36,220 nt of DNA from Candidatus Schekmanbacteria bacterium (GCA_016188575.1 JACPHN010000060.1:1-36220); one strand, 5' to 3'. Positions 14,890 through 23,764 are shown, numbered from the stretch's first letter. Numbers and translations are program-made. The notes: generated by a model not told the origin, from the letters alone.

Positions 14890-17800
14890 ATGGACACGGC
14901 CGAGCCTTTGAAGAATACCTCGCAGCGACCCGCCGACGACACGGTGCCGGAGCAGATCGGCCCATTTCTCATCGCAAAGTTGCTGGGGCGTGGCGCTTCC
15001 GGTCTGATCTATGAAGCGCGCCACGCGGTTACCGGCGAGATTGCCGCCGTCAAGGTGCTGCACGCCTTGAAGGAAGGCCGCATCGAAGCCTTGCGGCGCG
15101 AGCTCGCGGTGCTCGCCCGGCTCGATCATCCCGGGGTGGTGCGGGTGCTCGCCAGCGGGGTTCGCGACGGGTTGCCGTGGTTCGCCATGGAGCGGGTCGA
15201 GGGGGAAGACTTGCGCGCGCATTGCCGCCGCTTGTGGGATCCGACCGCGTCGCCCGGCGCACCGGAACCCGAAGCGCTTCGGCTCATCCTCGCCACGCTG
15301 CGCCGGCTCGCACTGGTGCTCGCCTTCGTGCACGGCGAGGGCATCGTTCACCGGGATCTCAAGCCCGAAAACATCCTGGTGCGCCCGAGCGGCTTTCCCG
15401 TGCTGGTCGACTTCGGTCTGCACCTGCGATTTGGGCGCGAGACGTATCGCGAGGCGCTGGCGGAGGATCAGGAGGCCGCCGGCACGCTCCTGTTCATGTC
15501 CCCCGAGCAGCTCCGCGGCGAACCCGCCGATGCGCGCAGTGACTTGTACTCGCTCGGTTGCGTCATCTACGAGATTTTCACGGGTCATCCGCCGTTCTTG
15601 GGGCCGACAGTGCGCCACGTGATCCAGGGCCACCTTTTTGACGCGCCGCTACCTCCCTCGCGGGACCATCCGGGTTGCCCTGCCGTGCTCGACCAGCTCA
15701 TTCTCCGCCTGCTCGCCAAGGAACCGGGGGCGCGCCTTGGCCACGCTGCGGCGCTCGCGGAGCAGCTCGTCCTGGCCGGCTGGCTCGACCCCGAACCCGC
15801 CTGGTCCCGACCCGTCACGGTATGCCCCATCTACAGGCCGGCCTTGGTGGGCCGCATTCAGACGGTGCAGACCGTCCTCGAGAGACTGCGGGCGGGGCGC
15901 CCCGGAGAACAGGCCGGGCAGGCCAGGCCAGCCACGGAGCTCCTCCTCCTACTTATCGGCGGCGAGAGCGGCATCGGCAAGACGCGTGTGCTCATGGAGG
16001 TCGCGCGCGCGGCGCGCCGACTTCGCTATCGTATTCTCCGCGGCGAATGCCTGCCGCCGGCGGACCACCCGGCCGACGCGCGGCAAGCCGCGGGTGGCGG
16101 CGCTCTCTACCCCTTCGCGGGGATGCTGAGGGAGATGGCCGATCAGTGCCTCGAGGCCGGGGAGCGCGAGATTGCGCGCCTGTTCGGCGACGACCTGGCG
16201 CTCCTGTTGCCGTACAGCGCGGCGCTCGCGGAGCTCGTCTGCCCCGGCGCCGCCGCAATCGCGCAGCGCGCCGAGCTGCTGCCTCCGGAGGTGCGGAAGC
16301 GCCAGCTTTTCTCCGCGCTGCTGCGCGCCATCAACGCACTTGCGGGGGACCGCGCACCGCTCGTCATCATCGACGACCTACAGTGGGCGGACGAGCTCAC
16401 GCTGGAGCTGCTCACGGCCGTCGCGAGCGGCGATTTCGCCGCGGCGGCACCGGCTTTCCTCGGCGCCTACCGCGCGGAGGAAGCCGGCCCGCTGCTCGCA
16501 GCCTGTCTCTCGGCCGCCGGCGCGCACGTGCTGACTCTGGAGCGGCTCTCGCCGGCGGATATCGAAAGCATGACGGCGGAGATGCTGGGCACTGCCGCTC
16601 CGCCGCCTGAGCTCACCCGCTTTCTCGCCGAGGCCGCGAACGGAAACCCGTTCTTCGCCGCCGAGCTCCTGCGCAACGTGATCATGGCAGGCATTTTCCG
16701 CGCTGACGTCAACGGGCGGTGGGAGCGCGCGGCTGAAACCGCCGGGGAAAGCGCCGACCCGCGGCTGGCCGGGGAGCTCTCCTGCCTACCCGTTCCCAAA
16801 TCCGTCGAGGAGGTCATCGCCGCGCGCGTCTCCCGCCTGTCGCCGCGCGCGCGCGAGGTGATCGACGTCGCCGCGCTCGTGGGACGACACCTGCGCTGGC
16901 CGATCCTCGAGCTCGCGCTGCCGCACTTGGCGACGGTGCGTTCCGCGGTGACCGCCGAGCTCCTGGCGCGGCACGTCGTCGAGGAGTCGGAAACGAGCGG
17001 CGGGCTTCAGTTTGCGCATGATCGCATCTGCGAGGTGGTGCAGGCGCGGCTCGACCCCGCCAGGCGCGCGGCGCTTCACCGGCAGGTGGCGCTGGCTCTG
17101 GAAAGCGACGCGTCGACGTCGGATCGAGTGCCCGAGCTTGCCGCCGACCTCGCGCGCCACTGGCGGGCGGCGGCGGCTCCCGAGCAGGCGGCGCGCTACG
17201 CGCTGATCGCGGCGCGCCATGCGGTCACCCTGTCCGCGCTGGCGGCAGCGGAGGAACACTTCAAGCACTTCCTCGCGCTCTGCGACGAGCTTGGCGAGGC
17301 GTGGCGCACCGCGGCCGGGCACGGCGGGCACGTGACAGCGGCCGCGCGCTACGAGCTGGCGCAAGACGTTCTCAGAGCCCAGGGCCGGGCCGCCGACGCC
17401 GCGGCCGAGCTGGAAATCGCGCGGAGCGAGCTGGCCGCCACCCCGGGCTCATCGGAAAGTGCTCTGAACGCCCAGATCCTCCTCGGCCTTGCGGCCGCGC
17501 GCCGGGAAATCGGTGATCCGCACGCGGCGATTCCCCACGTCGCCGCTGCCGAGACGACCTTTCGCGAGCTCGGAGATCGCGTCGGAGCGGCCCGGGCCCG
17601 CGCGGAAACCGCCGCCATTCACAAGGCGCTCGGCCACATTCCCGCCGCCGCGGAGCACTTTTCCCGTGCCGCCGCGGCTTTTCGGTTGGCCGGCGAGCGC
17701 GGGGGCGAGGCTCTGGCCCTGACGAATCTGGCGGGCATTCTCGCGTCTCAGGGACAGGAGGCGGCCGCGGAGAGCGCTTTCGCGGCCGCGATCTCGGCCC

Positions 17801-18543
17801 ACCGGGCGGCCGGTAATCGGCGCGCGGAAGCTGTCGCTCTCGGCATTCTCGGTAGCGCGCGCATGCACGTGGCGCGCCTCGAGGATGCCGAGCGCGCGCT
17901 GACGGCGGCACTCGAAATCCTCCGTGACCTCGGCGACCGCCGCAACGAGGCGTGCTTTCTCACCGAGCTCGGCGTTCTGCGGCGGCTCCAGGGGCGCCAC
18001 GACGAAGCCTCCGCGACGCTCCTCGCCGCCCTCTCCAGGCATCGGCAGCTCGCCAACCGCCAGTTTGAGTCGATTGCGCTTGGACACCTTGGGGTGCTGC
18101 ACCTGGAGCTCGGGAAGGCGACAGAGGCGAAGGTCGCCCTGACCGCGGCGCGCGAGCTGCAACGAGCCATCGGCGACCGCTACTCCGAGGCGTTCACGGC
18201 AGTCGAGCTCGCTCGCGCGGAGCGCCTGATCGGCGGGTCGATCACGGCGGGGCGGGCGCACATCGATTTCGCGGAAACCGTGTACACCGAGGCCGGCTCG
18301 CCGCTCGGCCTCATCTCCTGCGCGTGCGAGCGCGCCTACCTGGAGATTGCGGCAGGCGGCACGGGAGAGGCGTTTCGCGAGCGAGCGCGGGCGCTCGCGA
18401 GCGCGCACGGCGTCACCGCTGACAGCGACACCGGGCGCGAGCTCCTGCGCATGGAAGAAGCTGTCGCCGCGGCCAGCGAGCGCGACCCGGGCTGCGGCCT
18501 GAGCGACTCCGCAGGCGGCTATCCTGCCGAGGGACGGCTATAG
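14890..18543 (+). CDS. Ser/Thr protein kinase fused to an AAA ATPase and TPR array
   Basis: The 1217-residue product has three parts. The kinase (about 22-295) is complete: Gly-loop GRGASG (33-38), Lys55 in 'AAVKVL', HRD at 154-156 in 'HRDLKPENIL', DFG at 174-176 and 'MSPEQLRGEPADARSDLYSL'. The predicted ATPase (about 315-700) has Walker A GESGIGKT (358-365) and Walker B 'LVIIDDLQWADE' with Asp495/Asp496. The C-terminal part (about 780-1190) carries TPR-like helices. This is the architecture of large signalling kinases related to the MalT/AfsR-type STAND ATPases; no DNA-binding or TM segment is visible, so it is cytoplasmic. ATG 14890 lies 125 bases after the second repeat-protein gene on the same strand. 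It may be co-transcribed and could regulate the envelope operon, but that is inferred only from position. Confidence 0.88.
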   Translation: MDTAEPLKNTSQRPADDTVPEQIGPFLIAKLLGRGASGLIYEARHAVTGEIAAVKVLHALKEGRIEALRRELAVLARLDHPGVVRVLASGVRDGLPWFAMERVEGEDLRAHCRRLWDPTASPGAPEPEALRLILATLRRLALVLAFVHGEGIVHRDLKPENILVRPSGFPVLVDFGLHLRFGRETYREALAEDQEAAGTLLFMSPEQLRGEPADARSDLYSLGCVIYEIFTGHPPFLGPTVRHVIQGHLFDAPLPPSRDHPGCPAVLDQLILRLLAKEPGARLGHAAALAEQLVLAGWLDPEPAWSRPVTVCPIYRPALVGRIQTVQTVLERLRAGRPGEQAGQARPATELLLLLIGGESGIGKTRVLMEVARAARRLRYRILRGECLPPADHPADARQAAGGGALYPFAGMLREMADQCLEAGEREIARLFGDDLALLLPYSAALAELVCPGAAAIAQRAELLPPEVRKRQLFSALLRAINALAGDRAPLVIIDDLQWADELTLELLTAVASGDFAAAAPAFLGAYRAEEAGPLLAACLSAAGAHVLTLERLSPADIESMTAEMLGTAAPPPELTRFLAEAANGNPFFAAELLRNVIMAGIFRADVNGRWERAAETAGESADPRLAGELSCLPVPKSVEEVIAARVSRLSPRAREVIDVAALVGRHLRWPILELALPHLATVRSAVTAELLARHVVEESETSGGLQFAHDRICEVVQARLDPARRAALHRQVALALESDASTSDRVPELAADLARHWRAAAAPEQAARYALIAARHAVTLSALAAAEEHFKHFLALCDELGEAWRTAAGHGGHVTAAARYELAQDVLRAQGRAADAAAELEIARSELAATPGSSESALNAQILLGLAAARREIGDPHAAIPHVAAAETTFRELGDRVGAARARAETAAIHKALGHIPAAAEHFSRAAAAFRLAGERGGEALALTNLAGILASQGQEAAAESAFAAAISAHRAAGNRRAEAVALGILGSARMHVARLEDAERALTAALEILRDLGDRRNEACFLTELGVLRRLQGRHDEASATLLAALSRHRQLANRQFESIALGHLGVLHLELGKATEAKVALTAARELQRAIGDRYSEAFTAVELARAERLIGGSITAGRAHIDFAETVYTEAGSPLGLISCACERAYLEIAAGGTGEAFRERARALASAHGVTADSDTGRELLRMEEAVAAASERDPGCGLSDSAGGYPAEGRL

Positions 18544-19106: not shown

Positions 19107-19211
19107 GATCTCAACTGCGCTGATTCGGCCGACCCGGTGAGGGCGATAGCGCCGGCACTGGGCTGTTATGGATCGCGGGTAGCGTGCCATCGAGCGAAAG
19201 GGAGTGGATGC

Positions 19212-19886
19212 GTGAACGTCAGCGAGGAGAAGTTCGACGCGTTGCTCGCGCTCATGCGCGAGCAGATCGAAGAAACACGCAACGGCCTCAGCGAGGTTCG
19301 CGCCGGTCTTCTGGCTGTTGAGGGCCGGGTGGACCTGGTTTCCTCGCACCTCGTCGAGCTTCGGGAGGAGTCGCGCAGCGGCCTGACGGGTCTCCGGGAG
19401 GAGACACACGAGAGTCTCAGCGAGCTGCGCGCGGATATGCGCGCGGGGCTCTTGGGGGTTGAGGGCCGGGTGGACCTGGTTTCCTCGCACCTCGTCGAGC
19501 TCCGGGAGGAGACGCACAACGGCCTGGCGGGGCTCCGGGAGGAGACGCACAACGGCCTGGCGGGGCTCCGGGAGGAGACGCACAGCGGCCTGGCGGGGCT
19601 CCGGGAGGAGACGCACAGCGGCCTGGCGGGGCTCCGGGCGGAGACACACAGCGGCCTGGCGGGGCTCCGGGCGGAGACACACGAGAGTCTCAGCGAGCTG
19701 CGCGCGGATATGCGCGAGGGCTTTTTGGCGGTGGAAGGCCGCCTGGATCTGGTTTCCTCCGGCCTCGTCGACCTCCGCGATCGCTTCGACGCCTTCTTGT
19801 CCGGACCTGGACATGGGCTCGTCGCCCGCGTTGAGGACCTCGAGCGCCGTCTCGAGCGTCTTGAGCGCGAGCGCCGGGCGAGTTAG
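19212..19886 (+). CDS. Coiled-coil protein of 11-residue repeats
   Basis: The 224-residue product starts at GTG (AAAGGGAG about 11 bases upstream). The same start context appears in the truncated copy at 18640. It is almost wholly helical: 'SEEKFDALLALMREQIEETR', a 47-residue segment ('GRVDLVSSHLVELREE') present twice, then repeated 11-residue units of the type G-L-A-G-L-R-E-E-T-H-N/S, ending in a charged leucine heptad 'VEDLERRLERLERERR'. The 11-residue period suggests a right-handed or apolipoprotein-like coiled coil. No signal peptide or TM segment is seen, so it is probably cytoplasmic. I do not recognise a named family. It is convergent with the helicase gene downstream. Confidence 0.75.
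   Translation: MNVSEEKFDALLALMREQIEETRNGLSEVRAGLLAVEGRVDLVSSHLVELREESRSGLTGLREETHESLSELRADMRAGLLGVEGRVDLVSSHLVELREETHNGLAGLREETHNGLAGLREETHSGLAGLREETHSGLAGLRAETHSGLAGLRAETHESLSELRADMREGFLAVEGRLDLVSSGLVDLRDRFDAFLSGPGHGLVARVEDLERRLERLERERRAS
19500..19685 (+). repeat. 33-base tandem repeat encoding the 11-residue units
   Basis: Five consecutive 33-base units begin at 19521, 19554, 19587, 19620 and 19653, each starting GGCCTGGCGGGGCTCCGGG and differing only in the AAC/AGC and GAGGAG/GCGGAG codons. A partial unit precedes them from 19500. Larger repeats flank the array: a segment at 19317 recurs 141 bases later at 19458, and ACACGAGAGTCTCAGCGAGC recurs near 19405 and 19678. Near-identity at DNA level indicates recent expansion or slippage. 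Confidence 0.9.
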
Positions 19887-20029: not shown

Positions 20030-23000
20030 CTATGAATCGCTACCGGTCGTCACGTCGCCCTCGTCCTTACGACCGGATGACTGCCAGGAGGACAGTTCCT
20101 CCGAATCAAGCACCGCTTTGAGCCGCGCGAGCGTTCGCATTCCCTCTGTGGCCGGCAGGTCTGCGTAATCCGGATTGTTTGCTTTGAGCACGTAGCGCCC
20201 CTCTGCAGTCTTCACAACCAGGCGCAACAAGTACTGATTGTCGCCGGCTTCGTCCTGGCGCTCGACCGCGAGAATCTTGCCCGTGATCGAACCCGCCCGC
20301 GTCGGCGAGATCAGCTCGAGCAGCAGGTAATCACCATCGCGGATTGGTCGCTTGCCACCGTCCATGGAGTTTCCCGAAGCCCGGGCGATGAAGTGAACGG
20401 CTGGGTCGAGCTTGCCGTAGCCCACCCCGACACGCCGAAACTCCGCGACGTCTGCCGAGCCCGTGCGAAAGTGGCCGCACGCGATCCTCAGGTTGGGAAA
20501 ATATGGCAGCTCTGCGTGGGGCTCCGCGGGTTTCAGCAAGGGAACGACATTGGTGACCTCGACGCTGCTCTCCTGTCGGGCCTCGTAGCTCGCCAGCCTG
20601 TAGTCGACGAGCTCCTGCACGAGCTCGGCAAAAAGCTCCCGCGCTTGCGACTCGACCTCAAAGCTCGGAACGAGGCACCCCTCTCTCGCGGAGAAGAAGG
20701 CCTTGCCGCCGCCTGGCCGGAACCCTCCGATCCAGGCGTTGACCGGGTTCTTTCGCCAGTAGCGCAGCCACCGGTCGTCAGCTCCGTCTTTCAGGTCGCT
20801 GACGTCATTTGGCAGATCCGCGAGCAGCGATCGGCGCCTCTGTAGCACCCACCATGACCGCTCGGCCAGGGCACGAAGTGTCGGCGGCGCCGTCCAACCC
20901 TCGAGCTCCTGGAGCGCTTCCAGCAGCACCATCTTGAAACTCTTCGTCATCTGGCCGAATTCCACCTCGGCCAAGAAGTCCCCGTGCCTGGTCGTGAGCG
21001 CGGACTCTTGCTGCGACAGATCTCCCGTCGAATTGATGAAGGCGAACCAGCCATCGGCCTTCTGTGCCCCGCACGCGATGATGTTTCCCGCGCGATAGGC
21101 CTCGGACAGTGTTGGTCGTCGGCCAAGAGTATCTCGCAACGCCTCGTAGCTTCCTCGCTCATAACATCGCGCTGAACCTCGACCTCGACTCCGCGTCGGT
21201 AGAGGACTGTTTGGCTCGAGCGACTTGAGAAACTGGATGATCCCCAGATCGTAGTTGACCGCGCAGCCTCTTGGCAGTTGCAACGTCCATTGCTCGACCT
21301 TCCGCGCAAAGTCCGCAAGTTGCCTGTCGCCTGGTGCAAGATCGAACAGCGCCTGGGGCTTGTGCAGGAAGTCACGGTGATTGCCGACAAAATCAAGGAC
21401 CACGAGCCGGTCCTTGTCCTCGGCCTTTCGCAGGCCGCGCCCCAACTGCTGCAAAAACAGGACCTTCGACTGCGTCGGCCGCAGCATCATCACCGTGTCG
21501 ATACCAGGAAGGTCCACGCCCTCGTTGAACAGGTCGACGGAAAAGACGGCCGACAGCCGACCGTCGCGCAGACGCTCCAAGGCTTCGGCGCGACTCAGCT
21601 CCGATCCGGCGTAGACGGCCGCGGCGCTGACTCCGGCCTTCGAGAACTGCTCGGCCATGAATTCGGCGTGGCGAATCGACGAGCAAAAGGCGAGCGTTCG
21701 CTTCTGTGCATGCTTTCGCCATTCCCTGAGCCCATGCCGTGCGCGGGCGAGGGTGGCAAGTCTGTTGGACAATTCGGCGGGATCGAAGCGACCGTTGCGC
21801 CACGGAATCGCCTTGTAATCAACGGTTTCGTCCAGGATCCCGAAGTAGTGAAACGGCACGAGCAGGCCGGCACTGATAGCATCGCGCAGGTTGTAGGTGA
21901 AGATCAGCTTCTCATCGCAGAGGACGAGAATGTCGGACTGATCCGTCCGATCCGGCGTCGCGGTGAGGCCCAACAGGAAACGCGGCGAAAAGTAATTGAT
22001 GATCCGCCGGTAGGTCGCCGCGGCGGCGTGATGAAACTCGTCAACCACGATGTAGTCGAAATGGCGCCGGGAGAACCGCTCCAGATGCGGCGCTCGGCCG
22101 ATCGTCTGCACCGAGGCACAAAGAGTGTCGACGTCTGCGTCCCGCGACCGGCCCCTGTAGAATCCCGTCCGCACCTGCGGGCGAACCCGGAGAAAGGTCT
22201 CCGCCGCCTGGTTGAGGATCTCCTCGCGATGCGCCACGAACAGAACCCGGCGAGCACCTGCCTGCTCGGCATCAAAGGCGGCGAGCCATGTCTTGCCAAG
22301 ACCGGTGGCAAGAACGACCAGGCCGCTGTGGTAACCCTGCGCGCGCGCCTGCGCGAGGGCCGCGAGCGCCGCGACCTGCACCGCGGTTGGCTGCGGGGGC
22401 GGCTCACGCTCCTGGCTCCCTGGCGCAATGGCGCGCGGCGGCGGTGTACGCCGTGATTCGTAGCGCTCGATCCAGGCGTCGGTAAGTGGCACGGCGTGAG
22501 GGTGTCCGAACAGCTCCTCGAAGCGATTGCGAGCCTCCACGAATCCGCTGTCACCGGGGTAGTCGACGCGATAGTTCCATTCGCGACCACTCTGCAGGGC
22601 TTCGGCGCTGATGTTGCTGGAGCCGATGAACGCAATTCCACGCAGCTCACCACCTTCGTCGAGCCTGGCACAAAGGTAGGCCTTCAAGTGGAAGCTGCTC
22701 CGCAAGGTCTCAAACACCCTCACCTGCGCGCCCTGCTCCTGAAGCAACAGCAGCAGTCGCAGCGCCTCAGGATCGGTCACGTCCAGGTAGTCGCTCGTCA
22801 GCACGCGCACGCGCGCCGGCAGACGCACTGCCTCGGTGCTCGGCAACAAGACGCCATAAAGCTCGGGCAAGAGGAGTCGAAGACCCGTTACCTTGATGAA
22901 GGCGACGGCAACGTCGACGTCCGTTGCCCGGCTGATGGCGGAACAGAGGTGTGGCAAAAACGGGTTCTCGCCGCCAGTAACGAGCTTGCTCGGTGACGCC

Positions 23001-23518
23001 GGTCGCCGGGTTACGAGCGCGTTGATCCACTTCTTCGCGGCACCTGCCGGCTCCAGACCATCGGAGTGCCACGACTCGAGCTGGTCTACCTCCGGCAGGG
23101 AGGCGATCCAGGCCTGGAGAATGGCGTCATTGGCGTCGGTGAAGCGGCGGCCCTCTCCTTCGTGTTCACCTGTACTCAGGTGAAAACTGAGAAACAGGAC
23201 GGCCCCGGGCTTGAGCGCACACCACAGGCGCCCGATGGCATCTGGAACCTCCCGGAGAGGAACATGCAGGAGACTCGCCCAGGCCCACACGCCGTCATAG
23301 CAGGCGCGCTCGTGCACGCACTGGAATCTCCCAGCCTGCACGGGGCTGCGGGTGTGCTCGCTTGCCAGCTCGGCCACACCTGGCGAATCGTCAATCGCGA
23401 CGACGCGGTAGCCGCGATCGCGAAAGGCCTTGGTATCGCGCCCGGACCCACATCCGGAGTCCAGGATCAAGCCGCCCGCGGGAATTTTCGCCAGGAACCG
23501 ATCGTAGAGCGCTTCCAT
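20030..23518 (-). CDS. Methyltransferase-PLD nuclease-SF2 helicase-DUF3427-S24 fusion protein
   Basis: The 1162-residue product has five modules. (1) SAM methyltransferase fold, about 1-165, motif I 'ILDSGCGSGRD' (Asp20). (2) PLD-type nuclease, about 180-355, HxK at His277/Lys279 and 'GSSN' at 299-302. (3) Superfamily 2 helicase, about 370-730: Walker A ATGLGKT (404-410), DEFH (493-496), TATP (519-522) and motif VI 'QLGRGLRK'. (4) DUF3427-like region, about 750-985. (5) C-terminal S24/LexA-like domain, about 1025-1135, with Ser1051 in 'ASGNSMDGG'. PLD-helicase-DUF3427 proteins are a known family thought to act on foreign or damaged DNA. ATG 23518 lies directly after an in-frame TGA and has no clear ribosome site. 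Helicase motifs are intact, so it is probably active. No partner gene is adjacent. Defence is the likely role but is inferred. Confidence 0.85.
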   Translation of the reverse strand: MEALYDRFLAKIPAGGLILDSGCGSGRDTKAFRDRGYRVVAIDDSPGVAELASEHTRSPVQAGRFQCVHERACYDGVWAWASLLHVPLREVPDAIGRLWCALKPGAVLFLSFHLSTGEHEGEGRRFTDANDAILQAWIASLPEVDQLESWHSDGLEPAGAAKKWINALVTRRPASPSKLVTGGENPFLPHLCSAISRATDVDVAVAFIKVTGLRLLLPELYGVLLPSTEAVRLPARVRVLTSDYLDVTDPEALRLLLLLQEQGAQVRVFETLRSSFHLKAYLCARLDEGGELRGIAFIGSSNISAEALQSGREWNYRVDYPGDSGFVEARNRFEELFGHPHAVPLTDAWIERYESRRTPPPRAIAPGSQEREPPPQPTAVQVAALAALAQARAQGYHSGLVVLATGLGKTWLAAFDAEQAGARRVLFVAHREEILNQAAETFLRVRPQVRTGFYRGRSRDADVDTLCASVQTIGRAPHLERFSRRHFDYIVVDEFHHAAAATYRRIINYFSPRFLLGLTATPDRTDQSDILVLCDEKLIFTYNLRDAISAGLLVPFHYFGILDETVDYKAIPWRNGRFDPAELSNRLATLARARHGLREWRKHAQKRTLAFCSSIRHAEFMAEQFSKAGVSAAAVYAGSELSRAEALERLRDGRLSAVFSVDLFNEGVDLPGIDTVMMLRPTQSKVLFLQQLGRGLRKAEDKDRLVVLDFVGNHRDFLHKPQALFDLAPGDRQLADFARKVEQWTLQLPRGCAVNYDLGIIQFLKSLEPNSPLPTRSRGRGSARCYERGSYEALRDTLGRRPTLSEAYRAGNIIACGAQKADGWFAFINSTGDLSQQESALTTRHGDFLAEVEFGQMTKSFKMVLLEALQELEGWTAPPTLRALAERSWWVLQRRRSLLADLPNDVSDLKDGADDRWLRYWRKNPVNAWIGGFRPGGGKAFFSAREGCLVPSFEVESQARELFAELVQELVDYRLASYEARQESSVEVTNVVPLLKPAEPHAELPYFPNLRIACGHFRTGSADVAEFRRVGVGYGKLDPAVHFIARASGNSMDGGKRPIRDGDYLLLELISPTRAGSITGKILAVERQDEAGDNQYLLRLVVKTAEGRYVLKANNPDYADLPATEGMRTLARLKAVLDSEELSSWQSSGRKDEGDVTTGSDS

Positions 23519-23764
23519 TCACGGCAACGTCGTTTCGCGCACATGCTCCTCACCGCAGTCTATCGACCCGCCGCCCCATGCGCAAGAGCAGGTGCGGCCC
23601 AGCCACCGCTAGCCAAGGCGGCGCCGGGCGCCCGACAGCTCGAGGTGCACCGTTGCGTGGTTGTTGCCGGTCCTCGTCGAGACCTTGGGGAGCGACAAGG
23701 ATGATGAAACTACCCGGCGCGTGCTGCACAAAGGGCCACTCATGGACCCCAGATCGCCTACCGG

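What the first reader, a model, noticed from the sequence alone, without database searches (positions are those of the whole stretch)
20030..23518. Five-module methyltransferase-nuclease-helicase-DUF3427-S24 protein
Methyltransferase, single-HxK PLD nuclease, SF2 helicase and a LexA/S24-like domain in one polypeptide suggest an all-in-one DNA-sensing defence effector. The methyltransferase could modify host DNA, a nucleotide or a small molecule, and the S24 domain could be a damage-triggered switch. The nearby DUF499 remnant supports a defence-prone locus.
Basis: partly seen in the sequence, partly recalled or inferred. Interest (0 to 1): 0.66.

Follow-up and report, generated by a model that had tools for sequence, protein, structure and literature searches.

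The report
Eroded fused SauUSI-type restriction enzyme
This is a horizontally acquired, partly eroded copy of an undescribed branch of SauUSI-like DNA-shredding restriction enzymes, which carry a small methyltransferase at the front and a LexA/UmuD-like domain that has lost its catalytic lysine; the copy here has lost the methylated-DNA reader and key methyltransferase residues.

Summary
The 1162-aa ORF (20030-23518, minus strand) is real. Methyltransferase (MTase), PLD nuclease, SF2 helicase and S24 modules are confirmed. DUF3427 is absent: Pfam finds none. In relatives DUF3427 (SauUSI's SRA methyl-cytosine reader) follows S24; here it has been lost.

PLD plus helicase is homologous to SauUSI (PDB 7clg, 8.7e-81), a characterised Type IV restriction enzyme. 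42 related loci define a branch in which the same small MTase is fused (one origin) or translationally coupled (gaps -11 to +12 nt) to PLD-helicase-coupler, with or without S24 and SRA. The window copy nests among fused, SRA-bearing forms from Pseudomonadota, so it was probably acquired horizontally, then eroded. An in-frame TGA replaces the MTase N-terminus, and 10 of 41 near-invariant MTase positions are broken (0-3 in every relative). Nuclease, helicase and S24 remain intact.

The MTase lacks DNA-MTase motifs. S24 keeps Ser and the Cys-Gly cleavage site, but the catalytic Lys is Arg in 31 of 32 sequences, so a self-cleaving damage switch is unlikely; a non-cleaving RecA-docking or regulatory role is inferred. 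The claimed DUF499 remnant is not there.

Verdict: eroded member of a new variant of SauUSI-type restriction enzymes.

The parts
20030..23518 (-). Whole ORF, 1162 aa: MTase - PLD nuclease - SF2 helicase - coupler-like region - S24
22994..23518 (-). Small class I SAM methyltransferase domain (residues 1-175), N-terminally truncated, 10 of 41 near-invariant family positions changed (A21S C80W G106A Y109F K113H G115S D154G R156E R159G E162K)
23519..23554 (-). Upstream remnant of the MTase N-terminus (GEEHVRETTLP-stop) aligned without gaps to ASEFFADTVLAD of the fused relative L014; an in-frame TGA stands at the conserved Asp codon just before the present ATG
22394..22993 (-). PLD-family nuclease domain (residues 176-375)
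22682..22690 (-). Single HxK motif H277-L278-K279 (H and K in 38 of 38 sequences; N302 and E313 also invariant)
   Evidence: aligned to SauUSI H119/K121
21329..22393 (-). SF2 helicase-like ATPase (residues 376-730); Walker A GLGKT 406-410, DEFHH, TATP and QQLGRGLR motifs intact
20510..21328 (-). Mostly helical coupler-like region (residues 731-1003); not DUF3427 by Pfam
20099..20509 (-). LexA/UmuD-like S24 domain (residues 1004-1140)
20474..20479 (-). Cys1014-Gly1015, position of the LexA/UmuD self-cleavage site (C-G in 31 of 32, A-G in L050)
20366..20368 (-). Ser1051, catalytic Ser position (32 of 32)
20222..20224 (-). Arg1099, in the column of LexA catalytic Lys156 (Arg 31 of 32, Lys only in L050)
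20033..20098 (-). Tail (residues 1141-1162); its start resembles the linker into the SRA domain of relatives (DSEELSSWQSSGRKDE against DPLEFAVGQSFVREEIP); the SRA domain is gone and no fragment of it is found downstream in any frame

Best explanation
The ORF is a horizontally acquired and partly eroded member of an undescribed branch of SauUSI-type (Type IV, ATP-dependent) restriction enzymes. In intact members, a small non-DNA class I methyltransferase is fused or translationally coupled to a PLD nuclease, an SF2 translocase and a coupler, followed by a LexA/UmuD-like S24 domain and, in the fused branch, the SRA methyl-cytosine reader. Inferred mechanism: the SRA reads modified foreign DNA, ATP-driven translocation brings PLD dimers together, and the DNA is shredded as shown for SauUSI (PMC7913695). 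The S24 domain keeps the fold and substrate loop but has Arg for Lys, so it most likely acts as a non-cleaving docking or regulatory domain (for example on RecA-DNA filaments or as a dimer contact), not as a protease. The MTase most likely acts on a small molecule or protein as an accessory or protective enzyme. The window copy keeps nuclease, helicase and S24 but lost the SRA and probably MTase activity, so it is unlikely to restrict methylated DNA and may be decaying. Shown here: homology, architecture, losses, Lys-to-Arg. Inferred: all biochemical roles.
For: SauUSI 7clg matches residues 175-723 at 8.7e-81. PADLOC mREase_IV 3e-91. 42 related loci, in most of which the MTase is fused or adjacent. 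Gaps of -11 to +12 nt in 23 split loci; MTase and helicase distances correlate (r = 0.77, 0 of 2000 permutations). One fusion origin, window sister to Accumulibacter (99/95) inside the fused clade; fused relatives with a complete C-terminus all keep the SRA. The SRA tail matches the SauUSI TRD, residues 807-918, 4.1e-12, and DUF3427 in Pfam. Window MTase breaks 10/41 near-invariant positions, others 0-3; PLD 1/39, helicase 5/144, S24 0/34. In-frame TGA upstream. Only 1 of 8 genomes of its phylum has a match. S24 fold matches lambda repressor, LexA and UmuD, including RecA-filament complexes 8gmu, 8s7g and 8gmt. Arg in the catalytic-Lys column in 31 of 32.
Against: Nuclease, helicase and S24 motifs are fully kept over 3.5 kb without a stop, which fits continued use better than old decay. 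Overall MTase divergence relative to the helicase is not raised in the window protein (ratio 1.76 against 1.68 +/- 0.30). Some relatives (Pseudoalteromonas, Thiohalocapsa) naturally end after S24, and some Vibrio and Aliidiomarina forms end after the coupler, so lack of an SRA need not mean loss of function. S24 Ser and Cys-Gly are strictly conserved, which is odd for a purely structural domain. SauUSI's Glu126 aligns to Ala284. No activity of any member has been tested.
Confidence: 0.68

Rival explanations
1. A fully working all-in-one DNA-sensing effector: the S24 domain self-cleaves on DNA damage and switches the nuclease on, and the MTase marks host DNA.
For: Ser1051 and Cys1014-Gly1015 are strictly conserved with LexA/UmuD-like spacing; LexA/UmuD fold including the cleavage-site region; nuclease and helicase intact. 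L050 has the canonical Lys and an Ala-Gly site, so an ancestral autoprotease is plausible.
Against: The catalytic Lys is Arg in 31 of 32. MTase motif IV is WACASLLHV, with no DPPY/NPPY or PC motif in 27 of 27, and its fold matches small-molecule and protein MTases. In the window the MTase has lost its N-terminus and 10 near-invariant residues.
Confidence: 0.08
2. The gene is a live, SRA-less variant in which the S24 domain has taken over target recognition or recruitment, as in the Pseudoalteromonas and Thiohalocapsa forms that end after S24; the missing MTase activity is supplied in trans by the intact stand-alone paralogue (L003, 62% identical).
For: Natural forms that end after S24; S24 shows 0 of 34 violations in the window; an intact stand-alone MTase that groups with the window MTase (91/87) is present in the same genome.
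Against: The window copy descends from SRA-bearing ancestors, keeps a linker remnant and has an in-frame stop at its start. L003 lies next to an acyl-CoA dehydrogenase-like ORF, not next to a nuclease.
Confidence: 0.2
3. The family is a DNA-repair or recombination helicase-nuclease, not an anti-phage system; the truncated Vibrio-type forms without reader are the ancestral function.
For: RadD/YejH helicase similarity; LexA/UmuD-like domain; several loci lie next to housekeeping genes (beta clamp DnaN in the flank of L017; an ArfB-like ORF after Vibrio forms).
Against: The best match by far is SauUSI and mREase_IV; patchy distribution; defence genes in flanks such as HamA/HamB, AbiEi/AbiEii, PDC-S01, PDC-S08 and a second mREase_IV (control).
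Confidence: 0.12

Closest known systems
[quoted passage not shown] PMC7913695)
   Same: PLD nuclease with single HxK, SF2 DExH ATPase, helical coupler; relatives of the window protein also carry the C-terminal SRA/DUF3427 reader
   Different: Adds an N-terminal or coupled small MTase and an S24 domain between coupler and SRA; the window copy lacks the SRA; SauUSI Glu126 aligns to Ala284
UmuD / LexA / lambda repressor C-terminal S24 domain
   Same: Fold, Cys-Gly (or Ala-Gly) cleavage-site region, catalytic Ser, spacing
   Different: Catalytic Lys replaced by Arg in 31 of 32; located inside a restriction enzyme
RPA2492 (PDB 3e23) and TehB-like small class I methyltransferases
   Same: Whole fold (TM 0.93 to 3e23) and sequence (1.3e-37), same minimal size, no DNA-MTase motif
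   Different: Fused or coupled to a restriction enzyme; RPA2492 has no known function
SauUSI homologues next to MutT (PMC7641849) and the HIT-PLD-helicase-S24 protein L050
   Same: A SauUSI-type enzyme with a small accessory enzyme beside or fused to it
   Different: MutT or HIT hydrolase in place of the MTase
Type ISP / Type IIG single-chain restriction-modification enzymes (LlaBIII, LlaGI, MmeI)
   Same: Nuclease and MTase (and in Type ISP an ATPase) in one chain
   Different: Those have a true N6-adenine DNA MTase and a DNA specificity domain (from general knowledge); neither is present here

Membership tests
SauUSI-type Type IV restriction enzymes | PLD nuclease with HxK and N | tested here: met
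   H277, K279, N302 invariant; aligned to SauUSI H119/K121; SauUSI Glu126 aligns to Ala284
SauUSI-type Type IV restriction enzymes | SF2 DExH-type translocase homologous to SauUSI | tested here: met
   7clg 8.7e-81 over 175-723; motifs intact
SauUSI-type Type IV restriction enzymes | Helical coupler between ATPase and reader | tested here: inconclusive
   Residues 731-1003 mostly helical in AlphaFold2 (mean pLDDT 78 for 731-1162); no sequence or fold match to the SauUSI coupler shown
SauUSI-type Type IV restriction enzymes | C-terminal SRA / DUF3427 reader domain | tested here: not met
   Absent in the window; present in relatives L014, L030 and others
SauUSI-type Type IV restriction enzymes | ATP-dependent cleavage of 5mC/5hmC DNA | not testable with these tools
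   Needs biochemistry
LexA/UmuD S24 autoproteases | LexA/signal-peptidase fold with cleavage-site region | tested here: met
   Foldseek 2hnf 4.2e-8, 8gmu 1.2e-7; UmuD by profile 3.7e-4
LexA/UmuD S24 autoproteases | Catalytic Ser | tested here: met
   Ser1051, 32 of 32
LexA/UmuD S24 autoproteases | Catalytic Lys | tested here: not met
   Arg1099 aligns to LexA position 156
LexA/UmuD S24 autoproteases | RecA-stimulated self-cleavage | not testable with these tools
   Needs biochemistry
Restriction-modification DNA methyltransferases | Motif IV (D/N/S)PP(Y/F/W) or PC | tested here: not met
   None in 27 of 27; WACASLLHV instead
Restriction-modification DNA methyltransferases | DNA target-recognition domain in the MTase | tested here: not met
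   Minimal fold of about 195 residues; best fold matches are small-molecule and protein MTases
DISARM | DrmA helicase, DrmB DUF1998, DrmC PLD and DNA MTase genes | tested here: not met
   Only a weak DrmD match (0.0087) in PADLOC; no DUF1998 neighbour found in the ORFs scanned

The most novel reading that the evidence does not exclude
The branch is an SOS-linked Type IV restriction system: the Lys-to-Arg S24 domain is a locked LexA/UmuD mimic that binds RecA-ssDNA filaments without being cut, so that the nuclease-translocase is recruited to, or licensed by, DNA undergoing replication stress or entry, while the coupled methyltransferase protects the host by modifying a nucleotide or the enzyme itself.
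Probability: 0.15. Interest if true: 0.8.

Novelty: new variant of a known kind. Interest (0 to 1): 0.48.

Why it matters
SauUSI-type enzymes are major barriers to gene transfer. A branch that couples them to a non-DNA methyltransferase and to a LexA-like domain stripped of its catalytic lysine points to an unrecognised layer of regulation, possibly tied to RecA and the SOS state, and would make that link directly testable. I found no description of the combination in the papers searched, though the library is open-access only. The copy in this window is also a clear example of how such a multi-part defence protein is taken apart after transfer: reader lost, MTase degraded, motor and nuclease kept.

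Tried and rejected
Searched viral contigs with the coupler-S24 profile: no relative. Searched the genome for DUF499: none on the window's contig. Searched all frames downstream for a frameshifted SRA: none. Tested whether the window MTase evolves faster overall: it does not; only near-invariant positions are hit. Looked for a ribosome-binding site as evidence for or against translation from the present ATG: none seen, but most relatives also lack one, so uninformative. Considered K1103 as the catalytic Lys: the profile alignment to LexA places R1099, not K1103, at position 156. No step had to be referred.

Full report
Observation. The ORF at 20030-23518 on the minus strand is open for 1162 codons, with coding-like codon usage throughout. 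Pfam recognises a class I SAM methyltransferase, a PLD-like domain, ResIII plus Helicase_C, and Peptidase_S24. It does not recognise DUF3427 at E <= 1. The 'DUF499 remnant' is not on this contig, and no defence gene was recognised among the window ORFs scanned, which include secreted repeat proteins, a kinase-ATPase-TPR protein, DUF1697, a PilB-like ATPase and an ABC transporter.

What the core is. Residues 175-723 align with SauUSI (PDB 7clg, 8.7e-81), and PADLOC's Type IV restriction model scores 3e-91. SauUSI is a homodimeric PLD nuclease with an SF2 translocase, helical coupler and C-terminal SRA reader that shreds 5mC/5hmC DNA with ATP (PMC7913695; DUF3427 as the proposed reader, PMC3874153). 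In the window protein the HxK, N, Walker A, DExH and motif VI residues are intact and invariant in the family. SauUSI's Glu126 aligns to Ala284.

The family. A profile of the coupler-S24 region found 42 loci in a collection of one genome per species. Domain mapping gives a modular series. (I) MTase gene plus PLD-helicase-coupler (some Vibrio, Aliidiomarina). (II) The same plus S24 (Pseudoalteromonas, Shewanella, Thiohalocapsa, Vibrio aestuarianus). (III) A fused MTase-PLD-helicase-coupler-S24-SRA chain of about 1280 aa (Accumulibacter, Oxalobacteraceae, Marinobacter, Ectothiorhodospira, a Verrucomicrobiota MAG). The SRA tail matches Pfam DUF3427 and SauUSI residues 807-918 (4.1e-12). In 23 split loci the MTase stop and the nuclease start lie -11 to +12 nt apart, and MTase and helicase distances correlate (Mantel r = 0.77, 0 of 2000), so the pair travels together. 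On the helicase tree the fused forms, with the window, are one clade (99/94), and the window is sister to Accumulibacter (99/95). Only this genome, of 8 held in its phylum, has a match, which fits horizontal gain. The same small MTase also lies beside SauUSI-like and other SF2 helicases in gut contigs (L058, L059).

What the window copy lost. First, the SRA: complete fused relatives carry it, the window tail begins like the linker into it and then diverges, and no fragment is found in any frame downstream. Second, the MTase N-terminus: the conserved YYNxNAxxFxxxTxxVDM segment is replaced by a weakly recognisable remnant with a TGA at the conserved Asp codon, directly before the present ATG. 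Third, MTase core residues: 10 of 41 positions that are at least 95% conserved are changed, against 0-3 in every other member, while PLD (1/39), helicase (5/144), coupler (1/28) and S24 (0/34) are normal. Overall MTase divergence is not raised, so the evidence is for loss of key residues, not for free drift. An intact stand-alone MTase paralogue (62%) and a separate SauUSI-like enzyme with SRA exist elsewhere in the genome.

The S24 domain. Its AlphaFold2 model matches the lambda repressor fragment with cleavage region, LexA, UmuD and their RecA-filament complexes; profile search agrees (UmuD 3.7e-4). Cys1014-Gly1015 and Ser1051 occupy the cleavage-site and nucleophile positions and are conserved (31 and 32 of 32). 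The column of the general base, LexA position 156, is Arg in 31 of 32 and Lys only in the HIT-linked Planctomycetota protein L050. Self-cleavage is therefore unlikely but not excluded. A non-cleaving docking or regulatory role is inference.

The MTase. No member has a DNA-methylase motif IV (27 of 27). The closest structures are RPA2492 (unknown function, TM 0.93), toxoflavin-pathway and other small-molecule MTases and N-terminal protein MTases. An accessory, possibly protective or house-cleaning role is inferred, by analogy with MutT beside SauUSI homologues (PMC7641849) and the HIT domain in L050.

Defence context. The family is patchy (12/150 and 7/369 genomes). Flanks of 15 relatives (93 ORFs) hit 100 PADLOC models, including HamA/HamB, AbiEi/AbiEii, PDC-S01, PDC-S08, a second mREase_IV and a type II MTase. 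Fifteen regions from the same genomes (126 ORFs) hit 22 models, mostly of kinds also found in housekeeping helicases, MTases and MotB-like proteins. The test counts models, not systems, and some loci sit among housekeeping genes (for example the beta clamp near L017), so this is moderate support.

Verdict. The ORF is an eroded member of an undescribed variant of SauUSI-type restriction enzymes. Literature searches found no description of the MTase plus S24 architecture.

Noticed in passing
L010 16766-19477, L032 13695-16862, L037 11502-14672, L039 11007-14177, L050 4397-7507: PLD-helicase-S24 forms without SRA often sit within about 8 kb of a second PLD-helicase that does carry an SRA domain, which hints at pairing of the two forms.
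   Followed up: partly
L050 2-4282: A Planctomycetota protein with HIT-PLD-helicase-coupler-S24 order, whose S24 keeps the canonical Ala-Gly site and catalytic Lys; possibly the ancestral, cleavable state.
   Followed up: partly
L058 4267-8365 and L059 5878-9008 (gut contigs filed as phage): The same small methyltransferase family lies beside a SauUSI-like protein and beside a different SF2 helicase without PLD, so it may be a general partner of SF2-helicase defence proteins.
   Followed up: partly
L044, L045, L048 (Vibrio) and L046, L051 (Aliidiomarina): Reader-less forms that end after the coupler have fixed downstream neighbours, an ArfB-like ORF in Vibrio and a NERD-like ORF in Aliidiomarina.
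   Followed up: no
window 19137-19886 (+), repeat 19499-19682: A 249-aa coiled-coil ORF with 5.6 nearly perfect copies of a 33-bp repeat converges on the 3' end of the gene; expansion there may have accompanied loss of the SRA end.
   Followed up: partly
window 14890-18543 (+): A 1217-aa Ser/Thr kinase - AAA ATPase - TPR protein.
   Followed up: no
L003 / L056 9453-10154 (-): An intact stand-alone copy of the methyltransferase (62% identical) in the same genome, next to an acyl-CoA dehydrogenase-like ORF.
   Followed up: partly
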